Below are positions 976-20,729 of a DNA stretch of 24,901 bases, one piece after another. The stretch is taken from positions 1 through 24,901 of IMG/VR virus record IMGVR_UViG_3300032163_000099; one strand, 5' to 3'. The DNA is from a virus. Position numbers and translations under genes: made by a program. The stretch's first letter is position 1; each line of letters begins with the position of its first letter. A model generated the notes under the pieces. It was not told the DNA's origin, did no database searches, and saw only the letters and a list, made by a program, of their open reading frames with translations.

Positions 976-1593
976 CTACGTCCCCCCGATCACGGACTTG
1001 ATGATGTAGCGGATGGTCTCGGCGCGGTTCTTGAAACCCATCTTCGTGGTAAGGGTGTCAAGGGCCTCCGACTCTTCGGGTGTCAGGCGGGTGGCGACGG
1101 CTGTGTTGAGCCCGGCGCCATTTCCGGGTGGCCGACCCCTCCTGGAAGGTTGTTTATTTGGCGTAACATTTTCTTGGCGAGGCGCACTGCCGCAAGTCTG
1201 TGGTTTGTACTCTGGTGTAGCATGGAGATAGCCTGCGGCCTTCTGCCGTATTTCTGGGTCTACCTCAAGCCAGCCAATTAACTGATTGCAGCGGGCACAT
1301 AGCAGGCCACGGATCTGCCCAGTTGTATGGTTATGATCTACAAAGAGAGGCTTGCCTCCGTTTTTCGGTGGTTCATGGCAAATAGCACAGACGCCGTCCT
1401 GATCCTTCAGACGGGCAGCATAGTCATCGGCTGATATCCCATATAGGTTCATTAGTGCATTCGTTCGCTGCATCTCCTTGCGGCAGGGACGACAATAACT
1501 CGAACCTGGGCGGCCATTGTTTCCACAACTCCGAACAAACTCGGTTATGGGCTTATCTTGTTGACAATGCAAACAATGTCTTGAGTCCGTCAT
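976..1593 (-). CDS. Endonuclease VII-like nuclease fused to a ribbon-helix-helix domain
   Basis: The first ~110 residues match the recombination endonuclease VII (HNH superfamily) pattern: two Cys pairs near the N-terminus (CLHC and CRPC), then DGVCAICHEPP, the catalytic VDHNHTTGQIRGLLCARCN segment and IGWLE. A linker follows with an AT-hook-like RRGRPPGNG. The last ~45 residues (LNTAVATRLTPEESEALDTL, then NRAETIRYIIKSV) look like a complete CopG/MetJ-type ribbon-helix-helix DNA-binding domain. Such Endo VII genes in phages are often homing nucleases. The RHH tail could give sequence specificity, or it could be the remnant of an RHH gene that the nuclease invaded. The start overlaps the upstream stop as ATGA. 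Confidence 0.85.
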   Translation of the reverse strand: MTDSRHCLHCQQDKPITEFVRSCGNNGRPGSSYCRPCRKEMQRTNALMNLYGISADDYAARLKDQDGVCAICHEPPKNGGKPLFVDHNHTTGQIRGLLCARCNQLIGWLEVDPEIRQKAAGYLHATPEYKPQTCGSAPRQENVTPNKQPSRRGRPPGNGAGLNTAVATRLTPEESEALDTLTTKMGFKNRAETIRYIIKSVIGGT

Positions 1594-3267: not shown

Positions 3268-3506
3268 GTTCCCACCAGCAACTTCACGATGCCGCGCCCA
3301 CTAGGACTGAGTATGGGGCGACCAAAGCGCCGCAGGAGTACCTCATCCACGGCCAAGAGCCGGTTGGCAAGGCGGCGCCCGTGTTCCTCTAGCTTCTCCT
3401 CCGGCCAGTCGGCGTACCACCGGTCTATGAGTTCCTGCCGACTCCCGGTAAGGGTGCGCCGTCTCCGTCCGCCGCAGACTCGGTAGGTGATCTTCGCCTC
3501 AGACAT
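3264..3506 (-). CDS. Small basic protein of unknown function (80 aa)
   Basis: I do not recognise a family. The N-terminus has an Arg-rich run (CGGRRRRTLTG), then a predicted helical part (RQELIDRWYADWPEEKLEEH) and a second basic helical part (RRLANRLLAVDEVLLRRFG). The composition suits nucleic-acid binding, but that is inference. It starts MSE through the 8-base overlap ATGTCTGA with the C5 methyltransferase stop and ends by ATGA overlap with the 32-residue membrane protein, so it is probably translated by coupling. Confidence 0.65.
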   Translation of the reverse strand: MSEAKITYRVCGGRRRRTLTGSRQELIDRWYADWPEEKLEEHGRRLANRLLAVDEVLLRRFGRPILSPSGRGIVKLLVGT

Positions 3507-4545
3507 CGATTGCCGCCAAGATTCGCCGCCCGATCCATTTGATTACGTTCACTGTCATGGCGTCTCCGAGGGCGGCGTACCGCCTGCCATCGGGGCACCG
3601 TGGACATGGGTCCAGCCCACAGGAAAACTTTGTAGTAACTCGCACTCGCTGGGTGTCAACCTTCTCACAGACATGGTTGTCAGCGATGGGGTTGCTGTTT
3701 CCGTTGTGGGCTTCTGCTCCCGTGATGGGGCCGCAAATGACATTCCCCTCATCTCCGTGGCTATCGCTCCCTCCCCAGCGGTTGGAGCGCAGGGGCTGGG
3801 CGATGAGATTGTCGGCTCCGTCCGCCCTTGGACTGCTTCGCCCGTGATGCCCGTCGCTGGCTTCAAGAGGGGCGGCGACATAGGTTTCATTGTCAAGGTC
3901 GTTTCTATGCCCGCCAAAGCTAGAAGTGCTTCCTCCAAGCGGGGCGGCAAGGTCTTGCCCCGCCTTTCCGCCCGCCGGAGTATCCCCGCCGCCGCCCTCG
4001 GACTCAAAGAGTATTTCGGGTGGGCACGGGGCTCCAAGATGTCCGACAATGTAGACACGGCGGCGTCTCTGGGGCACTCCGAAATACTGGCTGTCCAGGA
4101 TTCGCCAGCCCAGACCATACCCGCATTCGGAAAGCGTTTCGAGGACGATGCCCATGTCCTGACCTTCATGCGAAGACAGGAGGCCAGGAACATTCTCAAC
4201 GATGAGCCAGCGGGGGCGGATCGCCGCAGCCACCCGCATGAAGTCAAAGAACAGCCCACTCCTCTCTCCCTTCAAACCCGCCCGTTTGCCTGCGACTGAA
4301 AGATCCTGGCAGGGGAAACCGCCGATAATCAGGTCAACCTTCCACCCAGGATCATCCAGATATGGCATTGTCTGTATGTCATCCCAACGGAGGGTGGTCG
4401 GCCAGTGTCGTTCCAGTACCTTCCTCCGCCAAGGATCGAGTTCCACCTGCCATATGACATCCCAACCCGCTCGTTCCAGACCGAGATCGCCGCCCCCGAT
4501 ACCAGCGAACAATGATCCGCAGGTGGGACGGCGTTCCTCAGACAT
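3499..4545 (-). CDS. C5-cytosine DNA methyltransferase with a frame-disrupted C-terminal region
   Basis: The family motifs are clear: FAGIGGGDLGLERAG (SAM binding, ~13-27), GGFPCQDLSVAG with catalytic Cys79, ENVPGL (117-122), QRRRRVYIVG (~160), and the final GDAMTVNVIKWIGRRI. The product would methylate cytosine at C5 in a specific site, probably to protect phage DNA from host restriction. No cognate nuclease gene is visible. Between the variable region and the last motif the conserved SVRRLTPSECELLQSFPVGW element is present only in a shifted frame. As sequenced, the recognition/motif IX part is therefore scrambled over about 33 codons between two G/C runs (see findings). The start is the ATG in the ATGTCTGA overlap; an upstream GTG at 4572 is less likely. 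Confidence 0.85.
   Translation of the reverse strand: MSEERRPTCGSLFAGIGGGDLGLERAGWDVIWQVELDPWRRKVLERHWPTTLRWDDIQTMPYLDDPGWKVDLIIGGFPCQDLSVAGKRAGLKGERSGLFFDFMRVAAAIRPRWLIVENVPGLLSSHEGQDMGIVLETLSECGYGLGWRILDSQYFGVPQRRRRVYIVGHLGAPCPPEILFESEGGGGDTPAGGKAGQDLAAPLGGSTSSFGGHRNDLDNETYVAAPLEASDGHHGRSSPRADGADNLIAQPLRSNRWGGSDSHGDEGNVICGPITGAEAHNGNSNPIADNHVCEKVDTQRVRVTTKFSCGLDPCPRCPDGRRYAALGDAMTVNVIKWIGRRILAAIDV
3592..3691 (-). other. Out-of-frame segment inside the C5 methyltransferase
   Basis: On the minus strand this stretch is bounded by two CCCC runs (3688-3691 and 3592-3595). Read one base ahead of the main frame it encodes PSLTTMSVRRLTPSECELLQ and then SFPVGWTHVHGAP, which is the expected conserved C5 methyltransferase sequence. 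Removing one C from the first run and adding one to the second restores NSNPSLTT at one edge and HGAPDGRRYAALGDAM at the other. The signal is seen directly. Whether it is an assembly error or a real pair of compensating indels is open. Confidence 0.75.
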
Positions 4546-4786
4546 CTGCCGCAATATGGCCTTCTCGGACACAGGGGCACCTGCTAAAGTCCCAGTAACG
4601 GATTTTCACTTCGGCCCCTGTGTGCTTTTCGAGTACCGCCCGCAGTGCCGGAAAGCGGTAGTGATAGCCACTGTCCCATCGCATTAGACAGGACAGGACT
4701 TCGGTAAGATTGCTACAGTACCGGGGGCCCTCCAACCGCAATTCATAGGCGGGGGAGTCATATAGGGTGGCTACATAGGGCTTCAT
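4538..4786 (-). CDS. Protein of unknown function (82 aa)
   Basis: No family is recognised. The protein starts MKPYVATLYDSPAYEL and has scattered aromatic residues, a Cys-rich tail (SRCPCVREGH) and a central WDSGYHYRFPALRAVLEKH segment. The start overlaps the upstream stop (ATGA) and the stop overlaps the methyltransferase start (ATGTCTGA), placing it in the same coupled transcript as the small terminase-like gene and the C5 methyltransferase. It may accompany the methyltransferase, but only position suggests this. Confidence 0.65.
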   Translation of the reverse strand: MKPYVATLYDSPAYELRLEGPRYCSNLTEVLSCLMRWDSGYHYRFPALRAVLEKHTGAEVKIRYWDFSRCPCVREGHIAADV

Positions 4787-5400: not shown

Positions 5401-6274
5401 TGGCCCTCGTATCAAAGACACTAGCCGCCGCGTTCACCACCTGCTGTAGCGAGTCGGGCCGGAAGGCCAGAAGTTCAGACGCCAGTCCCATGTAGGCTTT
5501 TCGTAGGGCGGCCTCGTCCACCAGCGGCGGGTTGCTGCTGACGTGAACCAACTTGCAGACCTCATCCCACTCGGCGTCCGTGGCGTGGTGGATGGTGTAG
5601 AAGTTGATGCCCTCCGGACAGTAGATTCCCGCACCCGTCGCCTGGAGACGGATACCCTCCGGTCCCATCGTGCGGATCTGTCCAGAGTCCTTCGGCCACT
5701 CCCAGGGGTAGGATTGAAGGGTGGGGAAGACCGGCAGACCGTAGAAGTCTTTACCCTGAAGACACTCCACAACGGCCAGTGTGATGTAGCCGTCCGGCTG
5801 CGATGGCCGGAAGGCACCGGGGTAGATCATGGGCATGACGCCGTTACACCGCAGCAACATGACCTGCTGGTATGGGTGGCGCAGACGGTCGCCGCGAGTA
5901 TCGATTGAGGCATAGAGTGGCGTCCCAGGGTGTCGGGCACGGAAGGTGTTGATGAGAGTCGTCATCGCTGGGCCGGTGTCCGTAAGTGGACCCCAGCCGC
6001 CGGGCCCTTCTTCGGCGTTGATGACGGCGAACTGGGCACCCGCATCCACGGCATTAGCCAACTTGGTGCCTTCACCAACGGGATCATCCCTGTAGGCGTA
6101 CCGCTCCGTGGCCCATCGGACACCGCCGGCGGCGTAGGCTTTCTCCGTGGCAGGCGCCCCATACTTGACGATGACGCCTTCGATCTTGGCCCGCTGCGCC
6201 CGCTCGACGCACTTCGCCAGGGGCATGGTAGACCAATTATTGTGCCATGCCCAAATACCCGCAGCCGTAGTCAT
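5393..6274 (-). CDS. TIM-barrel, glycoside-hydrolase-like protein
   Basis: The 293-residue protein begins MTTAAGIWAWHNNW and shows the alternating strand/helix layout of a TIM barrel: GVIVKYG, an Arg/Tyr-rich strand, AGAQFAVINAEEGPGGWG, TPLYASIDTRGDRL, GVMPMIYPGAF, and GLPVFPTLQSYPWEW. The acidic NAEEG after a beta strand would suit a glycosidase active site. About 60 helical residues follow at the C-terminus. It might be a cell-wall hydrolase or a virion-associated enzyme; substrate and role are inference. The chosen start (ATG 6274) has AAAGGAGA at good spacing and an ATGA overlap with the HNH gene stop. An upstream in-frame extension to 6346 lies inside that HNH gene and is unlikely. Confidence 0.6.
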   Translation of the reverse strand: MTTAAGIWAWHNNWSTMPLAKCVERAQRAKIEGVIVKYGAPATEKAYAAGGVRWATERYAYRDDPVGEGTKLANAVDAGAQFAVINAEEGPGGWGPLTDTGPAMTTLINTFRARHPGTPLYASIDTRGDRLRHPYQQVMLLRCNGVMPMIYPGAFRPSQPDGYITLAVVECLQGKDFYGLPVFPTLQSYPWEWPKDSGQIRTMGPEGIRLQATGAGIYCPEGINFYTIHHATDAEWDEVCKLVHVSSNPPLVDEAALRKAYMGLASELLAFRPDSLQQVVNAAASVFDTRANV

Positions 6275-6705
6275 CGTATGGTCTCCTTTATCTCCCGATT
6301 CTTCTGGCGGGATCTTTGATTGACAATCCTGAAACAGGTCCGACATCGGCGCAGGATGCGCCCATTTGCACCGATGTAGGTGTACGTGTTCGCAAGATCA
6401 TAGGGATGCCCACGCCGACAGATCTGGTATCGCCCTCTGCGACGATTCTCGGCGTGTGTGACAACGCACAGGTGGGCAGGGTTCACACAGGATTGGTTCC
6501 TGCAAAGGTGGTCGATCTCTAGTCCAATTGGGATGGGGCCACACCACGTTCGATAGGAGAGTCTGTGGACATAGCGGCAGCGGCCAGAGATCCAGATATG
6601 CCCGTACCCGCGTCTGTTTTTGGCCCCAGTCCAAACCCAACAGCCATAGGGGTCCAACCGCACGCGGGACCAAAGGCGTTCGAACAGACCTGCGGCTGTT
6701 GTCAT
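6271..6705 (-). CDS. HNH homing-type endonuclease
   Basis: The 144-residue protein has the phage HNH_3-like layout: LWSRVRLDPYGCWVWTG (~11-27), a GYGHIWISG strand, YVHRLSYRTWCGPIPIG, the catalytic LEIDHLCRNQSCVNPAHLC segment and THAENRRRG. A second Cys cluster (CRRGHP, CRTC) gives a C-terminal zinc site. Such enzymes nick or cut DNA and promote their own inheritance. The gene is wedged between the deoxyribosyltransferase-like gene and the TIM-barrel gene with ATGA overlaps on both sides. Its base composition looks less GC-rich than theirs. Its first six residues (MTTAAG) equal those of the next gene. Confidence 0.88.
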   Translation of the reverse strand: MTTAAGLFERLWSRVRLDPYGCWVWTGAKNRRGYGHIWISGRCRYVHRLSYRTWCGPIPIGLEIDHLCRNQSCVNPAHLCVVTHAENRRRGRYQICRRGHPYDLANTYTYIGANGRILRRCRTCFRIVNQRSRQKNREIKETIR

Positions 6706-7178
6706 GTTTCCTCACTTTTCACGAGACGGTAGCCACGATCCAAGAAGGTGTCGAGAAACTCCACCGCCTCTTCAATGGTCTCTGCGAAGTAACCGGCGTA
6801 GTGTTTGCACCAAGGGTGATCCTTGGAGCGCGTACCCACCACCACCACCGGCTTATGGTAGGCACGTGCGGCGAGCATCCACTCAAAGGCCGTGCCCCAA
6901 CTCGCATGGTTTCCTGTTAGGACAAGGAGTACGTCACAGCGGGCGATGTCGTCCTCATCCCTCTGGACTAAAGCCGCCTCCGTGACCCCCAACAGCCGTG
7001 TGGTCTCCGGGCCGTCCATCGGGTCGGTCAATGTGCTGAGGATCTGCCGTCCCCGAAGAGGATCCAGCACATCCCAGCCCCGCTCCAGCAGGAGAATTGT
7101 GGCCTGGTGGCGCTCCTTTGCGGCGGCGGAGTACATACGGCCGGAAAGAGTGCCGGACAGGTAGACTACTCTTCGCAT
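6702..7178 (-). CDS. Nucleoside 2-deoxyribosyltransferase-like protein
   Basis: The protein (158 aa) starts with a Rossmann-like strand and loop (RRVVYLSGTLSGRMY), then WDVLDPLRGRQIL. The C-terminal half carries RDEDDIARCDVLLVLTG, HASWGTAFEWMLAARAYHKPVVVVG. This is the pattern of the nucleoside 2-deoxyribosyltransferase / DUF4406 superfamily, with the Asp that contacts the sugar and the Glu used as nucleophile (here in TAFEW). Family members cleave or exchange N-glycosidic bonds of deoxynucleosides or related nucleotides. A role in phage nucleotide metabolism is likely, but the substrate is unknown. It overlaps the MazG/Nmad1-like gene by 13 bases, suggesting joint expression. Confidence 0.7.
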   Translation of the reverse strand: MRRVVYLSGTLSGRMYSAAAKERHQATILLLERGWDVLDPLRGRQILSTLTDPMDGPETTRLLGVTEAALVQRDEDDIARCDVLLVLTGNHASWGTAFEWMLAARAYHKPVVVVGTRSKDHPWCKHYAGYFAETIEEAVEFLDTFLDRGYRLVKSEET

Positions 7179-9090: not shown

Positions 9091-11880
9091 CTAGTCTTGG
9101 TCTTCCTTCCGCAGGTCGAGGATGTCTCCCCTGGCTGTCAGTTTGAATATCTCGTCGCCCCAATAAGGGCCCCAAGAGATTTCCACCGGCACGGCCCAGC
9201 CGAGGCGGGAACCATCCGGCAGGATCAAGGTCAGCGCCGTCTGCTCCCAGAGGTGCTTGATGATCCTGGCAGTCTCCTCCGCGTAGGCGTGGTCCGGCCA
9301 GTAGAACTCAAACGTAATGGAGTCATGGACGGAGATCACGGGGTAACATTGCCGCTGCTTCAGGGTTGGTGAGGCCTCTGTTAGAATGTGTGCCACACTG
9401 TGCAGCGTCGAACAACCTGATTGGATGGGGTAGTTGATTCCTTCGCGTATGAGTGCCTCCAAGTCATTGAACCGCCGCATGGCCTTGAGCAGTGACGCCG
9501 CCGGGAAGTGGCGCCGCTGACCGAAGATGTTGTCTCGGTGGCCCAGTTCGATCACGTCCCTTCGCGCTTGGGCGAAGTAGGAGGGCAGGCTGGCAACGAC
9601 CTGCATGTAGCGGATTCGGATCTCCTGTGCCTCTTCCAGACTGCAATCGAGACGGTCGGCGATCCCTTCATCGGTGAGTCCGTACCCAATGCCGAACACA
9701 AGTGTCTTTCCATGCCGCCGGAGGTCAGCATGTGCTTCCTTCCACTCGAAGTCCGTCATCTCCGGGTCAACTGGCCAGATAGCACGAGAGATGTAGACAT
9801 GGACATCCTGGCCGCTGGTGAGCACCTTCAGCAGGCCATCGTCCCCGGCCATGTACGCCAACCCCCAGACCTCCGCTTGGCTCCAGTCGGCGGTCATAAG
9901 GCCAAAACCTTCCGGTGCCATGAATGTCCGGCGGAAGGCGTCCTTGGTTCCCAGTTCCGGAATCTCCACATTGGCGGGTTGGTTCTGCATGTTCGGGTCG
10001 GCGGAGGATAGGCGGGTTGTCTCAGCACCACCGGGACGGTAAGTGCTACGAACGCGATTGTCTGATTCGATGAAGCGGGCAAGGCCCCCCGCACCATTAC
10101 TACCGTCGAGGTAGGTGCCCTTGGCCTTCCGTAGTTCCTTGAGTTCCACCAGGATGGGCAGGATGGGATGGTCAACCTGAGAACGAACGGCAGCAAGGGC
10201 ATCCGCCCCCGTCTGCTCGTGCTCGAAGCAGAGGCCCACGTCGCAGGCCTCACATCCGCGCCCGCCATCAGTCTTGAAGCCACTCTTGGGCAACCCCAAC
10301 TCCTCGAAGAGGATGCGTTGGAGGTTCTTGTGGTACATGTAGTTCCAGGGTGCCTTGGTCTCTGGCAGAGGGATGGCCCAGAGCCGTGCCTCCGCGTCCG
10401 CGATGCGCTGGGAGTAGTGGGCGCAGAGTTTCTCGAAGTAGTCCGTGTCCACCAGGACGCCGCGCTTCTCCATCTCCCAGCAGCAGCGTATGAGGGGCTG
10501 GATGATCGCCTCCGATGCCCAGCGCGTACCCTCGGCATCGGCCTTCGCCCGTAGGACAGGGACCACCCGCTCCACGGCGTCGGCGTCGGCGGCACTGTAC
10601 TTCCAAAGCACGTCATCCGGGGCCTCCGACATCTTCCGCTTGTTGCTGCTGACGGCGTTGACTTCTGCCTCGTAGTAGGGCATCGGCGGGTCGGCATAGC
10701 GGGCCGTCAGAATGGAAAGACTATGGCGCTTGGTCTTCCGTGCCTCCGGCGGCATGGCTGTCTCTGCGACCGCATGGTGCAGGAGCATGGTGTCTTCAAT
10801 CTGGCCCTTGATCTCGATGCCGAAGGCGGTGGCGGCCGTCACGAAAGGCCAGTCCGGGCTCCGCTCCAGGAAGCGGAGGTCGAAGATTCCGTTTTGGAGT
10901 ACCTTCTTCTTATCCGAGCCAAAGATCTCCTTCAGGATGGTGATGACCTGGGGCCATTCGTCATCCGCCCAGTGGGAATCAACCCCGGATTTTGGTACTT
11001 CCACGAGGTAGGGCGGGCCGGATGGGGGCGCAGACATGAGGATGATCTCCGCCGGGGTCTTCGGTGGGCGTTTGCCCTCCAATAGGTTCTTGGCCACCCG
11101 CGGACTGATCTCCACGATGTCCTCCGCTACCCGCTGGTGCGACAGGAGCGGAACCACGAATCCCTCGCTGGGCTCGGTGGAGAAGGAAAGGCAGAGGATT
11201 TCATCGTGCCGCCAGTCAAGGCCGGTGGTCTCCGAATCCGCCGCAATTTCCCGCGTGGACGGATGGAGTAGGTAGTCTCTAAGGTCGGTGAGCTGGGCCA
11301 GTGTGGTGATGGCGGAGTAATCACCAAGGCGGGGCTGACCCAGCTCTCCCGACGCTATGCGGAGGGCCTTCTCGAAGTGGGCCTGCACGGTGTCGGCGAC
11401 GTGCCACTGGCCACGCAACAAGAAGGCCGGATGGTAGCTCGGAATGAATGGGATTCCTGTCTCTGGCTGAGTGAGTGTCTGGCCCAGTACCGAACTCAGG
11501 GTCACGGTCTGGCCGTAGACGCTTTGCAGGGCGACATCGCCCAGGGTGACGATGATTAGCGGGGCCACCTCCTTGATCTCTTCAATGAGGTACGGGCGGC
11601 AGGTCCGGATCTCGGCCACTGTTGGGCGCCGGTTGCCGGGTGGGTGACAGCGGATGGCGTTGGCTAGGTAGACGCCTTGTGCCGGGATGTTGGCCATGTC
11701 GCAGAGCAACCGGAGGAGGTGCCCGCTGGGGCCTACAAAGGCCTTACCTTGGAGGTCTTCCTCTTCGCCTGGCGCAAGTCCGACGAACATAATGAAGGCG
11801 GGGGTTCCACGACCGCCGACTATGCGCTTGCGGCACTTCGAGAGAGCAGGACATAAGTTACAGTCTGGGGCGGGGGGCAT
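9091..11880 (-). CDS. Uracil-DNA glycosylase / family A DNA polymerase fusion
   Basis: Residues ~1-175 are a family 4 uracil-DNA glycosylase-like domain: CNLC at 7-10, LAPGEEEDLQGKAFVGPSG, NAIRCHPPGNRRP and TCRPYL (the four Cys expected to bind an iron-sulfur cluster), VTLGDVAL and YHPAFLLR. A 3'-5' exonuclease domain follows with D215-S-E217, QNGIFDLRFL and YSAADADA. The polymerase domain has TTRLSSADPNMQNQP, motif A around D665 (TADWSQAEVW), motif B RRHGKTLVFGIGYG and motif C VHD with D853. All catalytic residues look intact. This is the replicative polymerase; the same domain order is known from the SPO1-type phage polymerase. A Cys/His cluster (C543, C546, C551, H554) sits in the thumb-to-palm region. 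The start has GAGGAA 7 bases upstream. Confidence 0.95.
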   Translation of the reverse strand: MPPAPDCNLCPALSKCRKRIVGGRGTPAFIMFVGLAPGEEEDLQGKAFVGPSGHLLRLLCDMANIPAQGVYLANAIRCHPPGNRRPTVAEIRTCRPYLIEEIKEVAPLIIVTLGDVALQSVYGQTVTLSSVLGQTLTQPETGIPFIPSYHPAFLLRGQWHVADTVQAHFEKALRIASGELGQPRLGDYSAITTLAQLTDLRDYLLHPSTREIAADSETTGLDWRHDEILCLSFSTEPSEGFVVPLLSHQRVAEDIVEISPRVAKNLLEGKRPPKTPAEIILMSAPPSGPPYLVEVPKSGVDSHWADDEWPQVITILKEIFGSDKKKVLQNGIFDLRFLERSPDWPFVTAATAFGIEIKGQIEDTMLLHHAVAETAMPPEARKTKRHSLSILTARYADPPMPYYEAEVNAVSSNKRKMSEAPDDVLWKYSAADADAVERVVPVLRAKADAEGTRWASEAIIQPLIRCCWEMEKRGVLVDTDYFEKLCAHYSQRIADAEARLWAIPLPETKAPWNYMYHKNLQRILFEELGLPKSGFKTDGGRGCEACDVGLCFEHEQTGADALAAVRSQVDHPILPILVELKELRKAKGTYLDGSNGAGGLARFIESDNRVRSTYRPGGAETTRLSSADPNMQNQPANVEIPELGTKDAFRRTFMAPEGFGLMTADWSQAEVWGLAYMAGDDGLLKVLTSGQDVHVYISRAIWPVDPEMTDFEWKEAHADLRRHGKTLVFGIGYGLTDEGIADRLDCSLEEAQEIRIRYMQVVASLPSYFAQARRDVIELGHRDNIFGQRRHFPAASLLKAMRRFNDLEALIREGINYPIQSGCSTLHSVAHILTEASPTLKQRQCYPVISVHDSITFEFYWPDHAYAEETARIIKHLWEQTALTLILPDGSRLGWAVPVEISWGPYWGDEIFKLTARGDILDLRKEDQD

Positions 11881-14122: not shown

Positions 14123-14328
14123 CCTAGTTCCTTTAGTACCTGCCGTGCCGTTAGCCGCCCCGCAGGAGCGCCCTGTAATGTGATCGCGGCAGGAACATAG
14201 TGGTCGCACCCGCGTCCGTGCCCATAGACATAAGAAAAGACTTCGCCGGTTCTCGTCTTCCGGACATTCACATCCATACCGTGGGCGTGGAGAATGCGGA
14301 CGTAGGATCGGAGGAAGTTCTCAACCAT
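14107..14328 (-). CDS. Small basic protein (73 aa)
   Basis: The chosen start (ATG 14328) overlaps the RecA stop as ATGGTTGA, similar to other 8-base junctions in the window; in-frame ATGs at 14340 and 14346 are alternatives. The protein begins MVENFLRSYVRILHAHGMDV, followed by VRKTRTGEVFSYVYGHGRG and TARQVLKELGCLEQ. The mix of short helices and strands suits a small DNA-associated protein, but no family is recognised. Its place between recombinase and exonuclease suggests an accessory role. Confidence 0.62.
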   Translation of the reverse strand: MVENFLRSYVRILHAHGMDVNVRKTRTGEVFSYVYGHGRGCDHYVPAAITLQGAPAGRLTARQVLKELGCLEQ

Positions 14329-15409
14329 CCGCCGTGGCATCTGCATCCTGCTCGCTCCTCTCGTTCGGATCCGGGCGCCACAGCAAAGGTGCCTCCCGGA
14401 TGATCTCCTGGAGGTCCGCCCTCTCTGCCAGGATGGAGGACCATTGCCGGCGCTGGAACTTGGCGCTCTCGCCATCCAGCGAGTACCACGATCCGGCCTG
14501 CGTGACGAGCCCCAGCCTCTCCAGCAGGTCTAGTTGGCTGTTCTCGTTGTCCACACCATAGAGGGCATAGATGTCGAACAGTCCTTGCTTTCCCTCCGGG
14601 GCGATGCTGCTCTTGCGGATCTCGGCCCGCACCGTGATGCCTACAGGATCCTCCCCAGTCTTGATGACGCCGGTGCTCGTGAAGTACACGAGCAGCGAAC
14701 CCCAGAAGACCAGGGCACCCTCACCGGCCATCGTGTTGCGCTTCATGGCCTTCCGACGCTCCCGACTCCGCGGATCACCCATGATGTCGAGATGCTGCCT
14801 GAGCTGGTTCACGAGGACCAGGGCAATTTTGTGGTGGGCCAGCATCGGCCCCAACCGTTGCATCTCCCGGCTTATCGTTCGGGCGATGATGCCGGGATGT
14901 GGTTGGTCGTCGATGGCGGCCTCCAACTGTTGCTTGGCGGGCAGCGCCGAGAGGGAATCCACGACGATACACACCAGACGGGCGGGGTCTTCCTCGCGGA
15001 CGTACTTTATGATCTCCTCGATGTCCTTAAAGCAGTCCTCCAAGGTTGCGGGCGTCGGCATGACCAGCCGGGCGGGGATGAGGCCAAGGCGTTCACCCCG
15101 GTCCCGGCTGTACCGATGCTCGGCGTCGATGAGGATCGCCAACCCGTCTCGGCGCTGCGTTTCCGCCAAGACGTGGTAGGCCACGGTAGATTTCCCGGCG
15201 CCCTCCTTGCCATAGAACACGGTGACACGGCCGACAGGGATACCCGGTTGCCCGATGATGTAGTCCAACATCGCGCACTGGGTACTGATGAAGTCAGCTA
15301 TGTCTGAGGTGAGGGGTTGAGAAGCGAGCTTTAGCTGGAACTTGGCAGCGAGACGCTCCTCAAACGTACCGGGTGCGTCCTCTGGCGGGGACGCCTTCTT
15401 CCGTGGCAT
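14321..15409 (-). CDS. RecA-like recombinase
   Basis: The 362-residue protein has Walker A GKEGAGKS (67-74), LAILIDAEHRYSRDRGE (matching the RecA helix after strand 2), LVCIVVDSLSALPAK as Walker B, and ALVLVNQLRQHLDIMGD matching the strand before loop 2. GEGALVFWGSLLVYFTS resembles the RecA core. Residues ~290-350 form a C-terminal extension with a winged-helix-like LDLLERLGLVTQAGSWYSLD. It should form ATP-dependent filaments on single-stranded DNA for strand exchange. GGAGGGAGAGAG stands directly before the ATG. It follows the SSB gene by 33 bases. Confidence 0.9.
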   Translation of the reverse strand: MPRKKASPPEDAPGTFEERLAAKFQLKLASQPLTSDIADFISTQCAMLDYIIGQPGIPVGRVTVFYGKEGAGKSTVAYHVLAETQRRDGLAILIDAEHRYSRDRGERLGLIPARLVMPTPATLEDCFKDIEEIIKYVREEDPARLVCIVVDSLSALPAKQQLEAAIDDQPHPGIIARTISREMQRLGPMLAHHKIALVLVNQLRQHLDIMGDPRSRERRKAMKRNTMAGEGALVFWGSLLVYFTSTGVIKTGEDPVGITVRAEIRKSSIAPEGKQGLFDIYALYGVDNENSQLDLLERLGLVTQAGSWYSLDGESAKFQRRQWSSILAERADLQEIIREAPLLWRPDPNERSEQDADATADG

Positions 15410-15442: not shown

Positions 15443-16348
15443 CTATTCGACCGCTGCTGTTTCCTTCTGTGCTCTCCGCAGCTTTTCCCGCAGTGAGGTT
15501 CGGGCCACTTCCTCTTCCGCAGTTGGGGCCGCCTTCGCCCGCGCCTTCGGCACTGCCGGGGCGGGTGCCTCCTCCTCCTCCTCTTCCGCCGCCAGTTCGC
15601 GGATCTCTCCCTCCACCACCTCATCCGGCGGCGGAGGCAGACCCGCGCCCAACCGGGGCCGGGCCGACGGTGCTGTGGATGCTCCAAAAGGATCGGTTGG
15701 CCCTGCCAGGACTTCCAGCATCCGCGCTGCGGTCAGCACCTCGTAGTTGGCCACGAGATCGTTCATGTTCTCCAGGAGATCCGGTGCCTCAAGCGGCATC
15801 GGGTCTGGGGCCAGGAGTACCTGATACCTCGTGTCCTGTACGCTTGTGCCCTTGCGCCGGATGAGCACCGGCCGCCCCGTGTCCGGGTCGGTGATGTCCC
15901 GTTCGTCTTCTGGCAACTCCTCGATGGCCTGGGTCAGGTCGTCTAGGGTCGTCCTTGGACATGGCCAGATGCGAACAAGGTTTTCCTTGGGGGTGCCGTC
16001 GTCCTTCAACGTCACGACGTTCATGGCCGCGTACCAGCGTGGCCCCTTGCCGTCGCCTTGTTCCCTGGCCTGGGCACAGGCGGGGCAGGGTTCGTCGTAC
16101 ATCTTGCGAAGACAGACGAACGGCGCCCGGTTCGCGCCGTAGAAGTGAACGGCCACCGGGTAGTAGAACAGGGTCTTGCCGGTATCGGGATCCGAAGGTA
16201 GGTCTTCCCTGGGCGGGAGGATCCTGATCCAGTTGTCTGCCCATTTGCCGCCGGGCCCCGACTGCGGCTTGAACAGTGGGGTGCCCTCTGCTAGGGCCTT
16301 GGCCGCCTCGACTGAGGCAGCAATATCAGGGCGTTTCCAGCTTCCCAT
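15443..16348 (-). CDS. gp32-like single-stranded DNA binding protein
   Basis: The protein (301 aa) has an N-terminal WADNWIRILPPRED strand, FYYPVAVHFYG, and a zinc-type cluster FVCLRKMYDEPCPACAQARE as in T4 gp32-like SSBs. RWYAAMNVVTLKDD and VRIWPCPRTTLDDL continue the OB fold. The tail is very acidic (EGEIRELAAEEEEEEAPA at ~251-268), as in SSBs that use an acidic tail to recruit partners, but a basic Ala/Lys/Arg-rich end follows. It coats single-stranded DNA for polymerase, primase-helicase and RecA. The start has GGAGGGTTAGG just upstream and lies 1 base after the preceding stop. Confidence 0.8.
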   Translation of the reverse strand: MGSWKRPDIAASVEAAKALAEGTPLFKPQSGPGGKWADNWIRILPPREDLPSDPDTGKTLFYYPVAVHFYGANRAPFVCLRKMYDEPCPACAQAREQGDGKGPRWYAAMNVVTLKDDGTPKENLVRIWPCPRTTLDDLTQAIEELPEDERDITDPDTGRPVLIRRKGTSVQDTRYQVLLAPDPMPLEAPDLLENMNDLVANYEVLTAARMLEVLAGPTDPFGASTAPSARPRLGAGLPPPPDEVVEGEIRELAAEEEEEEAPAPAVPKARAKAAPTAEEEVARTSLREKLRRAQKETAAVE

Positions 16349-16349
16349 C

Positions 16350-16523
16350 CTAACCCTCCACCTTCTTCAGGTAGTCAGCCACCAACTGGGCCCCGCCGAC
16401 GAGGACAATGACCAGGAACGCCGTGGTGCTGGCACTGAAGCCTAGCAACCCCACGACTGTCGCTGCCTTCGCCAGGCCGCCAGCCAGGGCCGCCAACCCT
16501 ATGATGAGCGCGTACTTCTTCAC
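16350..16523 (-). CDS. Small two-span membrane protein (57 aa)
   Basis: A GTG start at 16523 with AGGGAGAGAAGA upstream gives a protein beginning with KKYALIIGLAALAGGL. A Gly/Ala-rich part and a second hydrophobic span (TTAFLVIVLVGGAQLVA) follow, ending DYLKKVEG. Two membrane helices with lysines at both ends are likely. The preceding in-frame ATG at 16553 overlaps the end of the SemiSWEET-like gene and has no good ribosome binding site. The neighbour is also a membrane protein, so they may act together. The function is unknown. Confidence 0.62.
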   Translation of the reverse strand: MKKYALIIGLAALAGGLAKAATVVGLLGFSASTTAFLVIVLVGGAQLVADYLKKVEG

Positions 16524-16536
16524 TCTTCTCTCCCTT

Positions 16537-16812
16537 CTATTGCCACACAACAATGGCTACGATGGTGGCGCCGGTGCATACGGCGGCCACCAGATTGACC
16601 ACTTCTAAGATGCGGGAATGGGCCTTGATGCTGGTGCCAATGAGACCCACGCATCCGATGAACAAGGCAATGAAGGCGGGTAAGCTGAGGCCTGTTACGT
16701 CGCGCTTGGCGAAGACAGAGATACTCTGGGTCATGTAGAAGACCAAGAGTCCGCCGACACCAGCGAGGTTGATTAGTGCCCCAGTCAAGGGGGGAAGTCG
16801 CCGCCTTCTCAT
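16537..16812 (-). CDS. SemiSWEET / PQ-loop-like three-helix membrane protein
   Basis: The 91-residue protein has three hydrophobic helices: LINLAGVGGLLVFYMTQSIS, then GLSLPAFIALFIGCVGLIG and LEVVNLVAAVCTGATIVAIV. This matches bacterial SemiSWEET sugar transporters in length (about 90 residues), helix order and motifs. The first helix ends with a TQ where the family has PQ, a KRDVTGLS loop follows, and the third helix has an Asn (EVVN) where the family has its substrate-binding Asn. SemiSWEETs work as dimers moving sugars across the membrane. Finding one inside a phage replication operon is unexpected. An unrelated three-helix protein remains possible. Confidence 0.58.
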   Translation of the reverse strand: MRRRRLPPLTGALINLAGVGGLLVFYMTQSISVFAKRDVTGLSLPAFIALFIGCVGLIGTSIKAHSRILEVVNLVAAVCTGATIVAIVVWQ

Positions 16813-16851: not shown

Positions 16852-17826
16852 TCAACCCCGCTCCTCCGGGGGCGTGTTGAGCCGGATGGTTTGCGCTCGC
16901 ATCCAGGAGTCCATCGCCTTTTCGGTGGTCTCTTGTAGGACTCCATCTGATGCAGCATTGGGGTCTATGCCCTCCGGTAGTCGGGCCTCGACGTGTGGGA
17001 CGCCGTGGCTCCACAGGGACCGGCAGATCTGGCGGCTCGCATTCCTCCCGGCCTTATCGCCGTCCATCATAATGATAAAGGGACGCCACCCCACCGGCAG
17101 GCGACCGAGTAGTGTTACCTGCTGCGCCGACATCTGGCTACCCAAGATCGCCACTGCTTGGTTGGGCAGGCGCAGCGCGTCGAAGACGCCCTCCGTGATG
17201 ATGAGCGGGCGCGGATGTTGCAGGCGCTCCAGCCGGTCCAGGTTGAACACCACATCGCTCCGGCGGCTCCCGGCTGGGTACAGCACCTTGGGCTCAACCG
17301 CCGGGTCGAGGGCGCGGGCGACGAAGGTGTAGAGTTGCTTGTGGTATGTAACCGGAATGATGATGCGTCCGGCATAATATCCGGTGACGCAGAAACCGAT
17401 TCCGTAGGAGTGGGCACGGGGAGTCGGAACGTGGCGAGAATCTAGGTACTCGATGACATCCAGCCATTGTGCGTCCCCGTGGTCAGGGATGGGGGTAAAC
17501 TCATTGGGCAACGTCACCCCTGGAACCGGCGCCGGGACGCCACCACCGAACCGGAACTTGGGCTCTGCCCGGAACCGTAACTTGCGCCGAGCCTCGAATG
17601 CCTCCGCAGGCTCCATGCCCAGGGCCCGGTGGAACAGGTCGAACAGGTCTCCCCGCTCCTGGCAGCGGAAGCAGATCCACACACCAGTCTCCGCCTCGAT
17701 GTAGAGCCGGGAACGGTCGTCCCCGCAGAGCGGGCAAGGAATCCGGATCTCGGTTCCGTCCTCTACCAGCTCGGCCTCAATGCCGCCGTCGATGAAGAAC
17801 TCTATGAGGGCATCAGGATCGATCAT
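16852..17826 (-). CDS. DnaG-like primase (zinc finger and TOPRIM)
   Basis: The protein (324 aa) has an N-terminal zinc ribbon, CPLC and CFRC (C31, C34, C52, C55), which reads the template. A primase core follows: YGIGFCVTGYYAGRIIIPV. The TOPRIM fold comes next: LIITEGVFDALRL (catalytic Glu212), AVAILGS and FIIMMDGDKAGRN (D255, D257). It should make RNA primers for the polymerase fusion and work with the DnaB-like helicase encoded upstream. It is shorter than cellular DnaG because it lacks the helicase-binding domain. The start overlaps the HNH gene stop (ATGA), with AAGGGAAAA upstream. Confidence 0.88.
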   Translation of the reverse strand: MIDPDALIEFFIDGGIEAELVEDGTEIRIPCPLCGDDRSRLYIEAETGVWICFRCQERGDLFDLFHRALGMEPAEAFEARRKLRFRAEPKFRFGGGVPAPVPGVTLPNEFTPIPDHGDAQWLDVIEYLDSRHVPTPRAHSYGIGFCVTGYYAGRIIIPVTYHKQLYTFVARALDPAVEPKVLYPAGSRRSDVVFNLDRLERLQHPRPLIITEGVFDALRLPNQAVAILGSQMSAQQVTLLGRLPVGWRPFIIMMDGDKAGRNASRQICRSLWSHGVPHVEARLPEGIDPNAASDGVLQETTEKAMDSWMRAQTIRLNTPPEERG

Positions 17827-18380
17827 TGGAGTTTTCCCTTTCTCTCTGCCTTACATCTACATGTGGGGCAGTGTGGTGGCCCGCTCCCTGCTCCGTGGCG
17901 ACCCCGCCAGAGTTCTAGGTTCTCTGGGCGGTTGTCCTGTTTGTCGCCGTTCTTGTGATGTACGGTTTCGCCTGGGTGGAGATAGCGTCCGATCAGATGT
18001 TCCATTATCAGGCGATGTTCGAGAACATAACCGTTGCTGGCAAACGGATGTTGGCGCATCCGCGTGTACACGTATCCGTCTGCTTGCCGGACACGGCCCC
18101 CTTTCCAATGTCCGTTCCGTGCACCACTGGTCATCCTTCCCGTTCTCCTGCCACTGCAATGGAGACATAAGCCCGTCAGATTTCCTTCCTTAATTGTCGC
18201 CCGAACCTGATGAACCGTAACCCGTTGGATGTCGTCGCAGATGACACAGCGGCGCAGTATGGATAACCGCCGGTTTCTGCCAGACGATTCTCCTGTGGAG
18301 ACAACCTGGTTGTCCAACGTGAAGTAGGATCGTAAGTCTTCGGGTAACTCGTCATAAGTCAGTGGCCTAGCTTTAGTCAT
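17823..18380 (-). CDS. HNH homing-type endonuclease between helicase and primase
   Basis: The 185-residue protein has an N-terminal region with CVICDD and CLHCSGRR (~44-82, a likely zinc finger), a GYVYTRMRQHPF linker and the HNH core LEHRLIMEHLIGRYLHPGE, TVHHKNGDKQDNRPENLELW. The C-terminus has a second Cys pair (CPTCRC). This matches phage HNH_3 enzymes, which are mobile genes that nick DNA at a target. It separates the helicase and primase genes with short overlaps on both sides (ATGACTAA, ATGA), and GGGGGAGAGGG precedes the ATG. Composition looks lower in GC than the flanking genes, consistent with late insertion. Confidence 0.88.
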   Translation of the reverse strand: MTKARPLTYDELPEDLRSYFTLDNQVVSTGESSGRNRRLSILRRCVICDDIQRVTVHQVRATIKEGNLTGLCLHCSGRRTGRMTSGARNGHWKGGRVRQADGYVYTRMRQHPFASNGYVLEHRLIMEHLIGRYLHPGETVHHKNGDKQDNRPENLELWRGRHGAGSGPPHCPTCRCKAERKGKLQ

Positions 18381-19734
18381 CCCTCTCCCCCGATAGTACC
18401 CCCGTTAGGTTGCGCGTCTCGACGACTTCAAGTCCAGGGAACCCGTTGTCCCCTCGACCGAATGTCGCCGTACAGCGCAGCCAGCCGCCGGTGGTACCGT
18501 GGTGTGTGTCCTTCAGCACCGAAACGTTCATCCAAGGCCCCTCCACGTCGTCCCGTTCCTGGTCGGTCTGGGCTAGGCCCAAGACAAAGTGTGCTTTCTG
18601 CGCCTTGGCAAAGGAGGCCCCCACATGCTTGAGGCTTATGCGGGCCTTGTCCACCGCCTCTCTTGTGGCTTGGCCGGTGGTCCAGATGGGCACTTCCCGC
18701 CCCTGTGCCACCTCGCCGCGGAGAGTGGTGAAGATATCCTTCAACTCTTCCCAACCCTGCCGCTTCTGGCGCTCTGGTACAAGTTCATCTGCCGAGTCCA
18801 AAACTATCAACCCCGGCGGTTGGCCAGTTTCGGCGATGTACTGGTCGATGTCGTGGATGAGGTCGCGGATGGTCATCAGCCCCGTCCGCACGTCGATGTC
18901 GGCGGCCGGCGGGTCTGCCATGTGTCTGCCCTTGGCGGCCCGGAGCAGTTCTGTCTGCCACAATGTAGCGTTTAGGGCCTCGTCCCGGCCCCACTTCAGG
19001 GAGCGGGCACCCTTCTGGAGGATGCCAGTCACGGCCCGGCGTAAGATCTGAGTTGGCGTCAACTCGAATGTGTAGTACAAGGTCGAACGTTTCTTCCAGA
19101 ATGCCTCCACCGCCATGTTGACGGCCAACATGCTCTTGCCGGTGCCCGTCGGACCAAGTATGATCCCCAACTCTCCGGGATGGATGCCGCCCTCCCACAG
19201 TTTATCCAGGTCATAGAGGCCTGTGGGGATGGCGCCGCCAGAGAATCCCTGCGGCGGTTCGCCGATGAATGCCGATAGGCACACGTTCTCGTCTGAATCC
19301 TCGGTGCTGGAAGTTAGGGCTGTGCTCAGTTTCTCCCTGGCCTTCTCCACGTCGCCTCTGTCCAGGGCGGCGCCTGCCTGTTCGACGTAGGCACCGAGGG
19401 CGTACTGTGCCAACCATGCCGTGCAGACCTCGCGGGCATAGGCCAACGAGGGGGCATCCGGCGCGTAGTTGTCCAACTCGAAGTAGAGGCGGATGACCGC
19501 TTCCTCCGTCGCCCGCGCCTTCCGGAGTTGGGTGTACTCCACTTCGAGGGCCTGACTTAGTACCGAGGCCGTGACCGTGTTGCGGTAACGTGCCCACTGC
19601 CGGAGGGCGAGGTCGGCAAGATACTTCATTGGCCCCGGAGGAAACACGTTTGGGTCCAGGGTCTTATGGGCCCGCAGGAAGTCCTCATCATGCAGGAGGA
19701 GCCAGACCGTGCGGTAGGCTACGTCGTCAGTCAT
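18373..19734 (-). CDS. DnaB-like replicative helicase
   Basis: The protein (453 aa) has a short N-terminal helical domain (YRTVWLLLHDEDFLRAHKTL, residues ~7-105) and a RecA-type helicase domain. That domain has IPTGLYDLDKLWEGGIHPGE, Walker A GPTGTGKS (194-201), STLYYTFELTPTQILRR, and PGLIVLDSADELVPE as Walker B. IWTTGQATREAV and HVGASFAKAQKAHFVLGL follow, the last with the Arg/Lys-rich loops of the family. It unwinds the fork and pairs with the primase encoded downstream. ATG 19734 was chosen for spacing to AAGGA; ATG 19737, overlapping the previous stop, is the alternative. A longer frame to 19899 overlaps the previous gene. Confidence 0.87.
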   Translation of the reverse strand: MTDDVAYRTVWLLLHDEDFLRAHKTLDPNVFPPGPMKYLADLALRQWARYRNTVTASVLSQALEVEYTQLRKARATEEAVIRLYFELDNYAPDAPSLAYAREVCTAWLAQYALGAYVEQAGAALDRGDVEKAREKLSTALTSSTEDSDENVCLSAFIGEPPQGFSGGAIPTGLYDLDKLWEGGIHPGELGIILGPTGTGKSMLAVNMAVEAFWKKRSTLYYTFELTPTQILRRAVTGILQKGARSLKWGRDEALNATLWQTELLRAAKGRHMADPPAADIDVRTGLMTIRDLIHDIDQYIAETGQPPGLIVLDSADELVPERQKRQGWEELKDIFTTLRGEVAQGREVPIWTTGQATREAVDKARISLKHVGASFAKAQKAHFVLGLAQTDQERDDVEGPWMNVSVLKDTHHGTTGGWLRCTATFGRGDNGFPGLEVVETRNLTGVLSGERDD

Positions 19735-19958
19735 CATACTTCCTTCAGCACGTCTACACCCACCCAAGACTTGAAGGCAGCGGCACAGCGAAGGCAGATG
19801 TTCCCCCGGAGACCACGCGAGTCGTTCGATTCGTTGTTTCTGGTGGCACCCAGGTAGAGTCCACAGTACGTTCCGTTGATCCCCATTACGATATGCCATC
19901 GTTGGCCGGGATGTCTCCGGGCGAAGAAGGTTCCGTAGCGGCTGAGGTCAACTGTCAT
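19734..19958 (-). CDS. Protein of unknown function (74 aa)
   Basis: The protein begins MTVDLSRYGTFFARRHPGQR, has a strand-rich middle (WHIVMGINGTYCGLYLGATR) and a single CLRC pair followed by AAAFKSWVGVDVLKEV. The two cysteines plus nearby residues could bind metal, but this is not certain. It starts by ATGA overlap with the upstream gene and ends at the helicase start (TGATG). It is probably an accessory to the helicase, by position only. Confidence 0.65.
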   Translation of the reverse strand: MTVDLSRYGTFFARRHPGQRWHIVMGINGTYCGLYLGATRNNESNDSRGLRGNICLRCAAAFKSWVGVDVLKEV

Positions 19959-20299
19959 CTCAACGCCACCTCCAACTCCGGTATCTTAGCGGCGAAGAGT
20001 CTCATCGTGTGGGTGTAGCGCCCGGCCAACGGTTCACTATGCCAGTGCCAGAAGTACGTGGCCAACTCCTTCAACCGCATCTCGCCATGCTTGAGGAGCA
20101 GGCGCTTCGCTATCCCGGCATCCTCGGCGTCGAAGGGTGGGCAAGAGGAGCGGCACTCTATCCCGCGCTGGCGGAACCAGTGCAGGAACTCGCCGACAGT
20201 GTTGGCCGGCGCCACCTCACCCCCAGGGGTCGGGCTCCACTCGGATCTCCGGACGTTCACGGAATACCGGCGGTGGCCGTCCGTCAGTGTCGTCCGCAT
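19955..20299 (-). CDS. Protein of unknown function (114 aa)
   Basis: The start is ATG 20299, preceded by AAGGGAGAGAG, the same strong ribosome binding site used elsewhere in the window. The protein starts MRTTLTDGHRRYSVNVRRSE and contains NTVGEFLHWFRQRGIEC, LLLKHGEMRLKELATYFWHW and YTHTMRLFAAKIPELEVALR. It appears mainly helical. The first ~27 codons overlap the tail of the NUMOD4-HNH gene in another frame, and the reading frame extending further upstream is a shadow of that gene. No family is recognised. Confidence 0.65.
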   Translation of the reverse strand: MRTTLTDGHRRYSVNVRRSEWSPTPGGEVAPANTVGEFLHWFRQRGIECRSSCPPFDAEDAGIAKRLLLKHGEMRLKELATYFWHWHSEPLAGRYTHTMRLFAAKIPELEVALR

Positions 20300-20729
20300 C
20301 TCTCTCCCTTCGCCTTTGGGCATAGTGATCCCGCAGATGCTTGGCTCGCGATCTCCACGCCAAGTTAGTGTCGCAATTATGTGCTTTGTTCCCGTCCTTA
20401 TGGTGGGTGATCTGGCGCGGGTCTTTCCACCGGGCTTCCGGCATCGGAGGGAGCCACGCCGCCACCACCAGCCGTTGCAGGGCAATAAAGAGACCCTTTG
20501 GCCGGGGCCTGTCTGTGTTCCGCAACTTATCGCCGTTGCCCGGCGGCATGTAGACATAGAGGTGGCCATCCGGTCTCCGTACAGGCTTGATGATCCGCCC
20601 GACGTAGGTTCCCTTGCCGGGTGTATCACGCCGCACCCTGCCCAGGTTGGAGACAACGTAATCCGGCACACCCGGTATCCGTTTGAACTGCTCCTCCCGC
20701 CGGCAGCAGGGACCGAAACTTTCGGGCAA
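20217..20729 (-). CDS. NUMOD4-HNH homing-type endonuclease
   Basis: The protein (170 aa) has the NUMOD4 motif (FKRIPGVPDYVVSNLGRVRR, ~15-34), a KGLFIALQRLVVAAWLPP helix and the HNH segment QITHHKDGNKAHNCDTNLAW (~107-126). The basic tail after HYAQRRRERD is short on conserved features and shares 83 bases with the next gene. It begins at TTG 20729 with AAAGGGAGAG 4 bases upstream, and it is the first gene after the long repeat-bearing gap. NUMOD-HNH enzymes are mobile genes common in phages. It may have been inserted between the early promoter and the replication operon. Confidence 0.82.
   Translation of the reverse strand: MPESFGPCCRREEQFKRIPGVPDYVVSNLGRVRRDTPGKGTYVGRIIKPVRRPDGHLYVYMPPGNGDKLRNTDRPRPKGLFIALQRLVVAAWLPPMPEARWKDPRQITHHKDGNKAHNCDTNLAWRSRAKHLRDHYAQRRRERDADDTDGRPPPVFRERPEIRVEPDPWG

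What the first reader, a model, noticed from the sequence alone, without database searches (positions are those of the whole stretch)
16537..16812. SemiSWEET-like transporter within the replication operon
Length, three-helix layout, the TQ in place of PQ, the KRDVTGLS loop and the Asn in helix 3 all agree with bacterial SemiSWEETs. Sugar transporters are rarely seen in phage genomes and especially not between primase and SSB genes. The adjacent 57-residue two-span protein may be its partner. It could alter host sugar flow, or serve as a lysis or superinfection membrane protein using this fold.
Basis: partly seen in the sequence, partly recalled or inferred. Interest (0 to 1): 0.65.

Follow-up and report, generated by a model that had tools for sequence, protein, structure and literature searches.

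The report
Phage three-helix membrane protein, SemiSWEET-like
A small group of uncultured phages carries, inside the block of DNA-replication genes, a short three-helix membrane protein that weakly resembles bacterial SemiSWEET sugar carriers but lacks most of the residues those carriers need, so it is probably a distant, repurposed relative rather than a working sugar transporter.

Summary
The gene is real. A 91-aa ORF on the minus strand (16537-16812) lies between a Toprim primase and a gp32-type SSB, followed by a 57-aa two-helix gene. Four other IMG/VR contigs carry the same pair in the same order (59-88% and 77-88% identity to the window copies). Substitution patterns show purifying selection (pN/pS 0.23-0.63).

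The link to SemiSWEET/PQ-loop proteins is weak but above chance. Pfam MtN3_slv matches 3 of 5 members, all below the gathering cut-off (best E 0.0018). Profile-profile comparison gives E 1.4e-4, z 4.7 against shuffles, with Gln29, Ser43, Gly53 and Asn73 in register. However, the profile scores higher still against one cation-efflux subfamily, apparently by chance, and AlphaFold models are too poor to decide (pLDDT about 60).

Features that define a working SemiSWEET are mostly missing: the hinge proline (T/T/V/T/F here), the pocket Trp (Leu), the Thr pair, and the Tyr and Gly after the Trp. By the positive-inside rule the protein would insert upside down compared with 43/43 SemiSWEETs.

I read it as a degenerate, probably inverted PQ-loop-like membrane protein acting with the 57-aa hairpin early in infection. 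Sugar transport is unlikely. No relative was found in GenBank phages or bacterial genomes.

The parts
16537..16812 (-). 91-aa three-helix membrane protein, SemiSWEET/PQ-loop-like
   Evidence: ORF; 3 hydrophobic spans; 4 homologues in viral contigs; purifying selection; sub-threshold MtN3_slv match; profile-profile match
16350..16523 (-). 57-aa two-helix protein (GTG start), conserved neighbour and candidate partner
   Evidence: 5 homologues, 77-88% identical to the window copy; GGGAGAG upstream in all five; pN/pS 0.13-0.39; no match in Pfam, PHROGs or PADLOC and only chance-level NCBIfam hits
16852..17826 (-). primase (zinc ribbon plus Toprim), upstream neighbour
   Evidence: Pfam Toprim_2 4.1e-9; PHROG 47 DNA primase 9.5e-51
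15443..16348 (-). gp32-like single-strand DNA-binding protein, downstream neighbour
   Evidence: Pfam gp32 2.8e-9; PHROG 1192
14321..15409 (-). UvsX/RecA-like recombinase
   Evidence: Pfam RecA 7.8e-33; PHROG 97
18373..19899 (-). DnaB-like replicative helicase (the annotated start may be too far upstream; homologues start at the internal MTDD)
   Evidence: PHROG 19 1.3e-43; homologues of 451 aa

Best explanation
A genuine phage gene encoding a small inner-membrane protein that most likely descends from the PQ-loop/SemiSWEET superfamily but has lost the hinge and sugar-pocket residues. Shown: gene reality, conservation, three hydrophobic spans, operon-like position, in-register Gln-Ser-Gly-Asn pattern, loss of Pro/Trp/Thr/Tyr. 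Inferred: it is made early with the replication proteins, inserts with its RRRR N-terminus inside (opposite to SemiSWEETs), forms a helical-bundle oligomer in which the Gln of helix 1 packs against the loop before helix 2 as in E. coli SemiSWEET, and works together with the 57-aa hairpin as an early membrane effector (for example changing membrane permeability or blocking a second phage) rather than as a sugar carrier.
For: Conserved in 5 contigs with its neighbour while other genes nearby come and go (extra 131-aa gene in L001; HNH gene in the window). Purifying selection. MtN3_slv is the top Pfam family for 3 of 5 (best E 0.0018). hhalign with a broad SemiSWEET set: E 1.4e-4, score 27.4 against shuffles 13.1 +/- 3.05, 0 of 60; an earlier run with a narrower set had 0 of 300 shuffles as high. 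Each single sequence scores about 12 bits against the SemiSWEET HMM, reached by only 1-5 of 1000 shuffles that keep the hydrophobic pattern. The two best hits of the phage profile in 24 bacterial genomes are both SemiSWEETs, though at E 0.06-0.07. Constant offset of 9 to Leptospira SemiSWEET: Q20/Q29, S34/S43, G44/G53, N64/N73. Loss of P19, W48, T13, T14, Y51, G52 in all five; P21A nearly abolishes transport in E. coli SemiSWEET (PMC4309421).
Against: All family matches are below curated cut-offs (14.5 and 18.7 bits against 23.7), and two members have no Pfam match at all. A cation-efflux subfamily scores higher with the same profile (E 7.5e-6; hhalign E 8.6e-7) although the cation-efflux family at large does not (z 0.2), which shows how far chance can go with membrane proteins. 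In one narrow-set test 1 of 60 shuffles exceeded the observed score. AlphaFold models have pLDDT 58-60; Foldseek ranks SemiSWEETs first for one model at E above 2 and not at all for the other. The predicted orientation is opposite to SemiSWEETs. The early-effector role rests only on gene position. The five phages are close relatives, so adjacency of the pair is not independent evidence of partnership.
Confidence: 0.42

Rival explanations
1. An unrelated small three-helix phage membrane protein that resembles SemiSWEETs by chance and by shared membrane composition.
For: Sub-threshold scores everywhere; P19, W48 and G6, which are present in all 43 SemiSWEETs checked, are absent; inverted charge pattern in 5 of 5; a chance match to a cation-efflux subfamily scores better; no confident fold.
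Against: Four of the near-universal SemiSWEET residues (Q, S, G, N) sit at exactly the right spacing over 44 residues in all five copies; shuffles that keep the hydrophobic pattern reach the score in 0 to about 0.5% of cases in most tests; matches strengthen rather than weaken as the SemiSWEET set is widened (24.3 to 27.4).
Confidence: 0.33
2. A working facilitative carrier of SemiSWEET type moving a small solute (sugar or other) across the host membrane for the benefit of the phage.
For: Pocket Asn (N73), Gln29, Ser43 and aromatic residues at the intracellular-gate positions (Y26, F47) are kept; loss of the Trp need not be fatal, since W50A raises sucrose uptake in E. coli SemiSWEET (PMC4309421). 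SemiSWEET-like genes exist in a few other phage records.
Against: The hinge Pro is absent in all five, and P21A lowers transport almost to the empty-liposome level; Thr pair, Tyr, Gly and gate Asp positions are also lost; no sugar-metabolism gene was recognised next to it; predicted inverted orientation.
Confidence: 0.13
3. A lysis-related pair: the 57-aa hairpin (both ends predicted inside, small-residue-rich helix 1) as a class II-like holin and the 91-aa protein as its regulator.
For: No lysis cassette was recognised in the 56-kb relative contig; size and two-span layout of the 57-aa protein fit class II holins (established knowledge); its conservation exceeds that of the 91-aa protein.
Against: Position between primase and SSB implies early expression; no endolysin or spanin gene next to it; no match to PHROGs holin families; class I holins have the opposite orientation to that predicted for the 91-aa protein (established knowledge).
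Confidence: 0.1

Closest known systems
SemiSWEET (MtN3_slv, PF03083), e.g. Leptospira biflexa 4QNC, E. coli 4X5M/4X5N
   Same: Length (91 against 82-100 aa), three helices, Gln in helix 1, Ser-Leu before helix 2, Gly in helix 2, Asn in helix 3, all at constant spacing; aromatic residues at the intracellular-gate positions.
   Different: No hinge Pro, no pocket Trp or Thr pair, no Tyr or Gly after the Trp; basic N-terminus instead of basic loop 1 and C-terminus, so predicted inverted orientation; sub-threshold scores.
PQ-loop repeat family (PF04193), including cystinosin
   Same: Three-helix repeat with Gln in helix 1; weak match of one member (E 0.15).
   Different: Single repeat, no Pro of the PQ motif, far below cut-off.
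Unnamed phage families PHROG 37682 and 25992
   Same: Small phage proteins that match true SemiSWEET-type sequences.
   Different: The window protein matches neither of them.
Cation diffusion facilitator subfamily (L124-L126)
   Same: Strong local similarity 'AFMALLIGCAGIVATLASNS' to helix 2.
   Different: Six-helix metal transporter; the cation-efflux family at large shows no similarity (z 0.2), so this is read as chance.

Membership tests
SemiSWEET / MtN3_slv (PF03083) | Match to the family profile above the curated cut-off | tested here: not met
   14.5, 18.7 and 13.5 bits for three members against a cut-off of 23.7; no match for two
SemiSWEET / MtN3_slv (PF03083) | Length near 80-100 aa with three transmembrane helices | tested here: met
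   91 aa, hydrophobic spans 9-27, 44-62, 71-89; three helices in both models
SemiSWEET / MtN3_slv (PF03083) | Pro-Gln motif in helix 1 (Pro is the hinge needed for transport) | tested here: not met
   Gln29 kept in all five, Pro replaced by T/T/V/T/F; function of the Pro from PMC4309421
SemiSWEET / MtN3_slv (PF03083) | Substrate pocket Trp (helix 2), Asn (helix 3) and Thr (helix 1) | tested here: not met
   Asn73 kept in all five; Trp replaced by Leu57 and Thr13/14 by Leu22/23 in all five
SemiSWEET / MtN3_slv (PF03083) | Orientation: helix 1-2 loop and C-terminus inside | tested here: not met
   Positive-inside rule: 43 of 43 SemiSWEETs fit; in the phage proteins the N-terminus (charge +4) and helix 2-3 loop carry the charge. 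Prediction only, not an experiment.
SemiSWEET / MtN3_slv (PF03083) | Profile-profile similarity above a composition-preserving null | tested here: met
   Score 27.4, E 1.4e-4, null 13.1 +/- 3.05, 0 of 60; 0 of 300; weakened by 1 of 60 in the narrow-set repeat
SemiSWEET / MtN3_slv (PF03083) | Parallel three-helix bundle with 1-3-2 order, working as a dimer | tested here: inconclusive
   Models of pLDDT 58-60; SemiSWEETs rank first for one model at E above 2, and Z 5.3-5.9 below unrelated bundles for the other
SemiSWEET / MtN3_slv (PF03083) | Sugar transport | not testable with these tools
   Needs an uptake assay
Cation diffusion facilitator (PF01545) | Similarity to the family at large | tested here: not met
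   hhalign z 0.2 (all members) and -0.7 (without L124-L126); no Pfam Cation_efflux match for any member
Phage holin (class I or II) | Match to a known holin family | tested here: not met
   No PHROGs match for either protein

The most novel reading that the evidence does not exclude
A phage-borne SemiSWEET derivative that inserts upside down and forms a mixed complex with a two-helix partner, acting as a new kind of early phage membrane effector tied to genome replication.
Probability: 0.1. Interest if true: 0.6.

Novelty: new variant of a known kind. Interest (0 to 1): 0.3.

Why it matters
If the descent from SemiSWEETs is right, it shows phages turning the smallest known carrier fold to another use, and gives a natural set of sequences in which hinge, pocket and orientation have all changed while the Gln-Ser-Gly-Asn frame stayed. 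It also marks a conserved membrane gene pair embedded between primase and SSB genes, a place where membrane proteins are not expected. If the resemblance is chance, it remains one more unassigned phage membrane pair.

Tried and rejected
Searches that found nothing: tblastn of the protein in 50,697 GenBank phages; PHROGs and PADLOC, with only a chance-level NCBIfam hit; PDB sequences with single protein and profile; pattern-plus-tblastn scan of 84,980 bacterial and archaeal genomes. Wider hunting through primase relatives gave two distant viruses (L021, L022), which carry no such pair after their primase. Two AlphaFold runs (3 and 5 rows) gave pLDDT 58-60; a run mixed with bacterial SemiSWEETs was not made because it would bias the model to the answer. 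VIA-align listed SemiSWEETs at Z 5.3-5.9, lower than unrelated helix bundles, so not used as support. The strong hit to cation-efflux proteins was followed up and rejected because it disappears in the family at large. A lysis role was considered; no lysis cassette was recognised elsewhere in the 56-kb relative, so it cannot be excluded. The host could not be identified, so comparison with host SemiSWEETs was not possible.

Full report
Observation. The ORF at 16537-16812 is real and lies on the minus strand. The window is a 24.9-kb IMG/VR virus record. Upstream is a zinc-ribbon/Toprim primase; downstream are a 57-aa two-span ORF, a gp32-like SSB and a UvsX/RecA protein, all on the same strand, with gaps of 39, 13, 1 and 33 bases.

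Is it a gene? Four other viral contigs carry the pair: L001 (IMGVR_UViG_3300031885_000017), L002 (3300031885_000019), L005 (3300031999_000236) and L010 (3300035179_000068). The 91-aa protein is 59-88% identical to the window copy, the 57-aa protein 77-88%. In-frame pN/pS is 0.23-0.63 for the first and 0.13-0.39 for the second, lower than in shifted frames. The order primase, 91-aa, 57-aa, SSB holds in all five. Other genes nearby vary: an HNH gene lies between helicase and primase in the window, and a 131-aa gene between the 57-aa gene and SSB in L001. The five are close relatives (primases 64-81% identical to the window copy), so shared order is only modest evidence of partnership. Two more distant viruses with 30% identical primases lack the pair.

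Is it a SemiSWEET? Pfam's best family is MtN3_slv for three members (E 0.038, 0.0018, 0.076), all below the cut-off of 23.7 bits; two members match nothing. Against 59 SemiSWEETs the five-row phage profile scores 27.4 in hhalign (E 1.4e-4), aligned from residue 26 to 91, while 60 shuffles that keep the hydrophobic pattern average 13.1 +/- 3.05 and never reach it. An earlier test with 29 SemiSWEETs gave 0 of 300 shuffles as high; a repeat with a different column rule gave 1 of 60. Single sequences score about 12 bits, matched by 1-5 of 1000 shuffles. Searching 24 SemiSWEET-bearing genomes with the phage profile, the two best hits were SemiSWEETs, at E 0.06-0.07. One serious warning: in 398 further genomes the same profile hit a cation-efflux subfamily at E 7.5e-6. 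That similarity vanishes for the cation-efflux family at large (z 0.2), so I take it as chance, but it shows that such E-values are not to be trusted alone. AlphaFold models from 3 and 5 rows are poor (pLDDT 58 and 60). Structure is therefore undecided.

What is kept and lost. With a constant offset of 9 to Leptospira SemiSWEET, the phage proteins keep Q20, S34, L35, G44 and N64 and lose G6, T13, T14, P19, M37, W48, Y51, G52 and P59. In E. coli SemiSWEET the Gln contacts the loop before helix 2 (Ser36 backbone), the Pro is the hinge and P21A nearly abolishes sucrose uptake, N66A lowers it, and W50A raises it (PMC4309421). So the phage proteins keep the packing Gln and the pocket Asn but not the hinge. 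In 43 of 43 SemiSWEETs the charge lies in loop 1 and the C-terminus; in all five phage proteins it lies in the RRRR N-terminus and, in most, loop 2. The positive-inside rule then predicts an inverted insertion. This is a prediction, not a measurement.

Mechanism. Shown: a conserved, selected membrane gene pair inside the replication block, with a weak SemiSWEET-like frame and missing transport residues. Inferred: early expression with the replication proteins, a helical-bundle oligomer, cooperation of the two membrane proteins, and a membrane effector role rather than sugar transport. Chance resemblance is the main rival (0.33), followed by a working carrier (0.13) and a lysis pair (0.10).

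Known context. SemiSWEET-type genes occur in a few other phage records: MT837855, LR756502 (642 kb) and one 315-kb IMG/VR contig. PHROGs has unnamed families that match SemiSWEETs. The held open-access library gave no paper describing SemiSWEETs in phages; that library is partial. Nothing matching the window protein was found in GenBank phages or bacterial genomes, but those scans reach close relatives only.

Noticed in passing
window 9091-11880 (-): Family A DNA polymerase with a fused N-terminal uracil-DNA glycosylase-superfamily domain (Pfam UDG 1.7e-28, DNA_pol_A 1.8e-50).
   Followed up: partly
window 976-1593, 6271-6705, 17823-18380, 20217-20729 (all -): At least three endonuclease genes of homing or HNH type (Endonuclease_7, HNH_3 twice) plus a NUMOD4-containing ORF; one HNH gene sits between helicase and primase.
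   Followed up: partly
window 3499-4572 (-) and 3555-4259 (-): Cytosine-C5 methylase whose Pfam match covers only the first half; the ORF of another frame holds 'RRLTPSECELLQSFPVGW', which looks like the C-terminal target part, so the gene seems frameshifted or misassembled.
   Followed up: no
window 6702-7178 (-): Nucleoside 2-deoxyribosyltransferase-like protein (Pfam 1.1e-6).
   Followed up: no
L124-L126 (bacterial genomes): A cation-efflux subfamily whose first helix region is strikingly like helix 2 of the phage protein (AFMALLIGC); read as chance but unexplained.
   Followed up: yes
L106 (IMGVR_UViG_3300044712_000810, 315 kb); LR756502; MT837855: Phage records with much clearer SemiSWEET genes, including the PQ motif.
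   Followed up: partly
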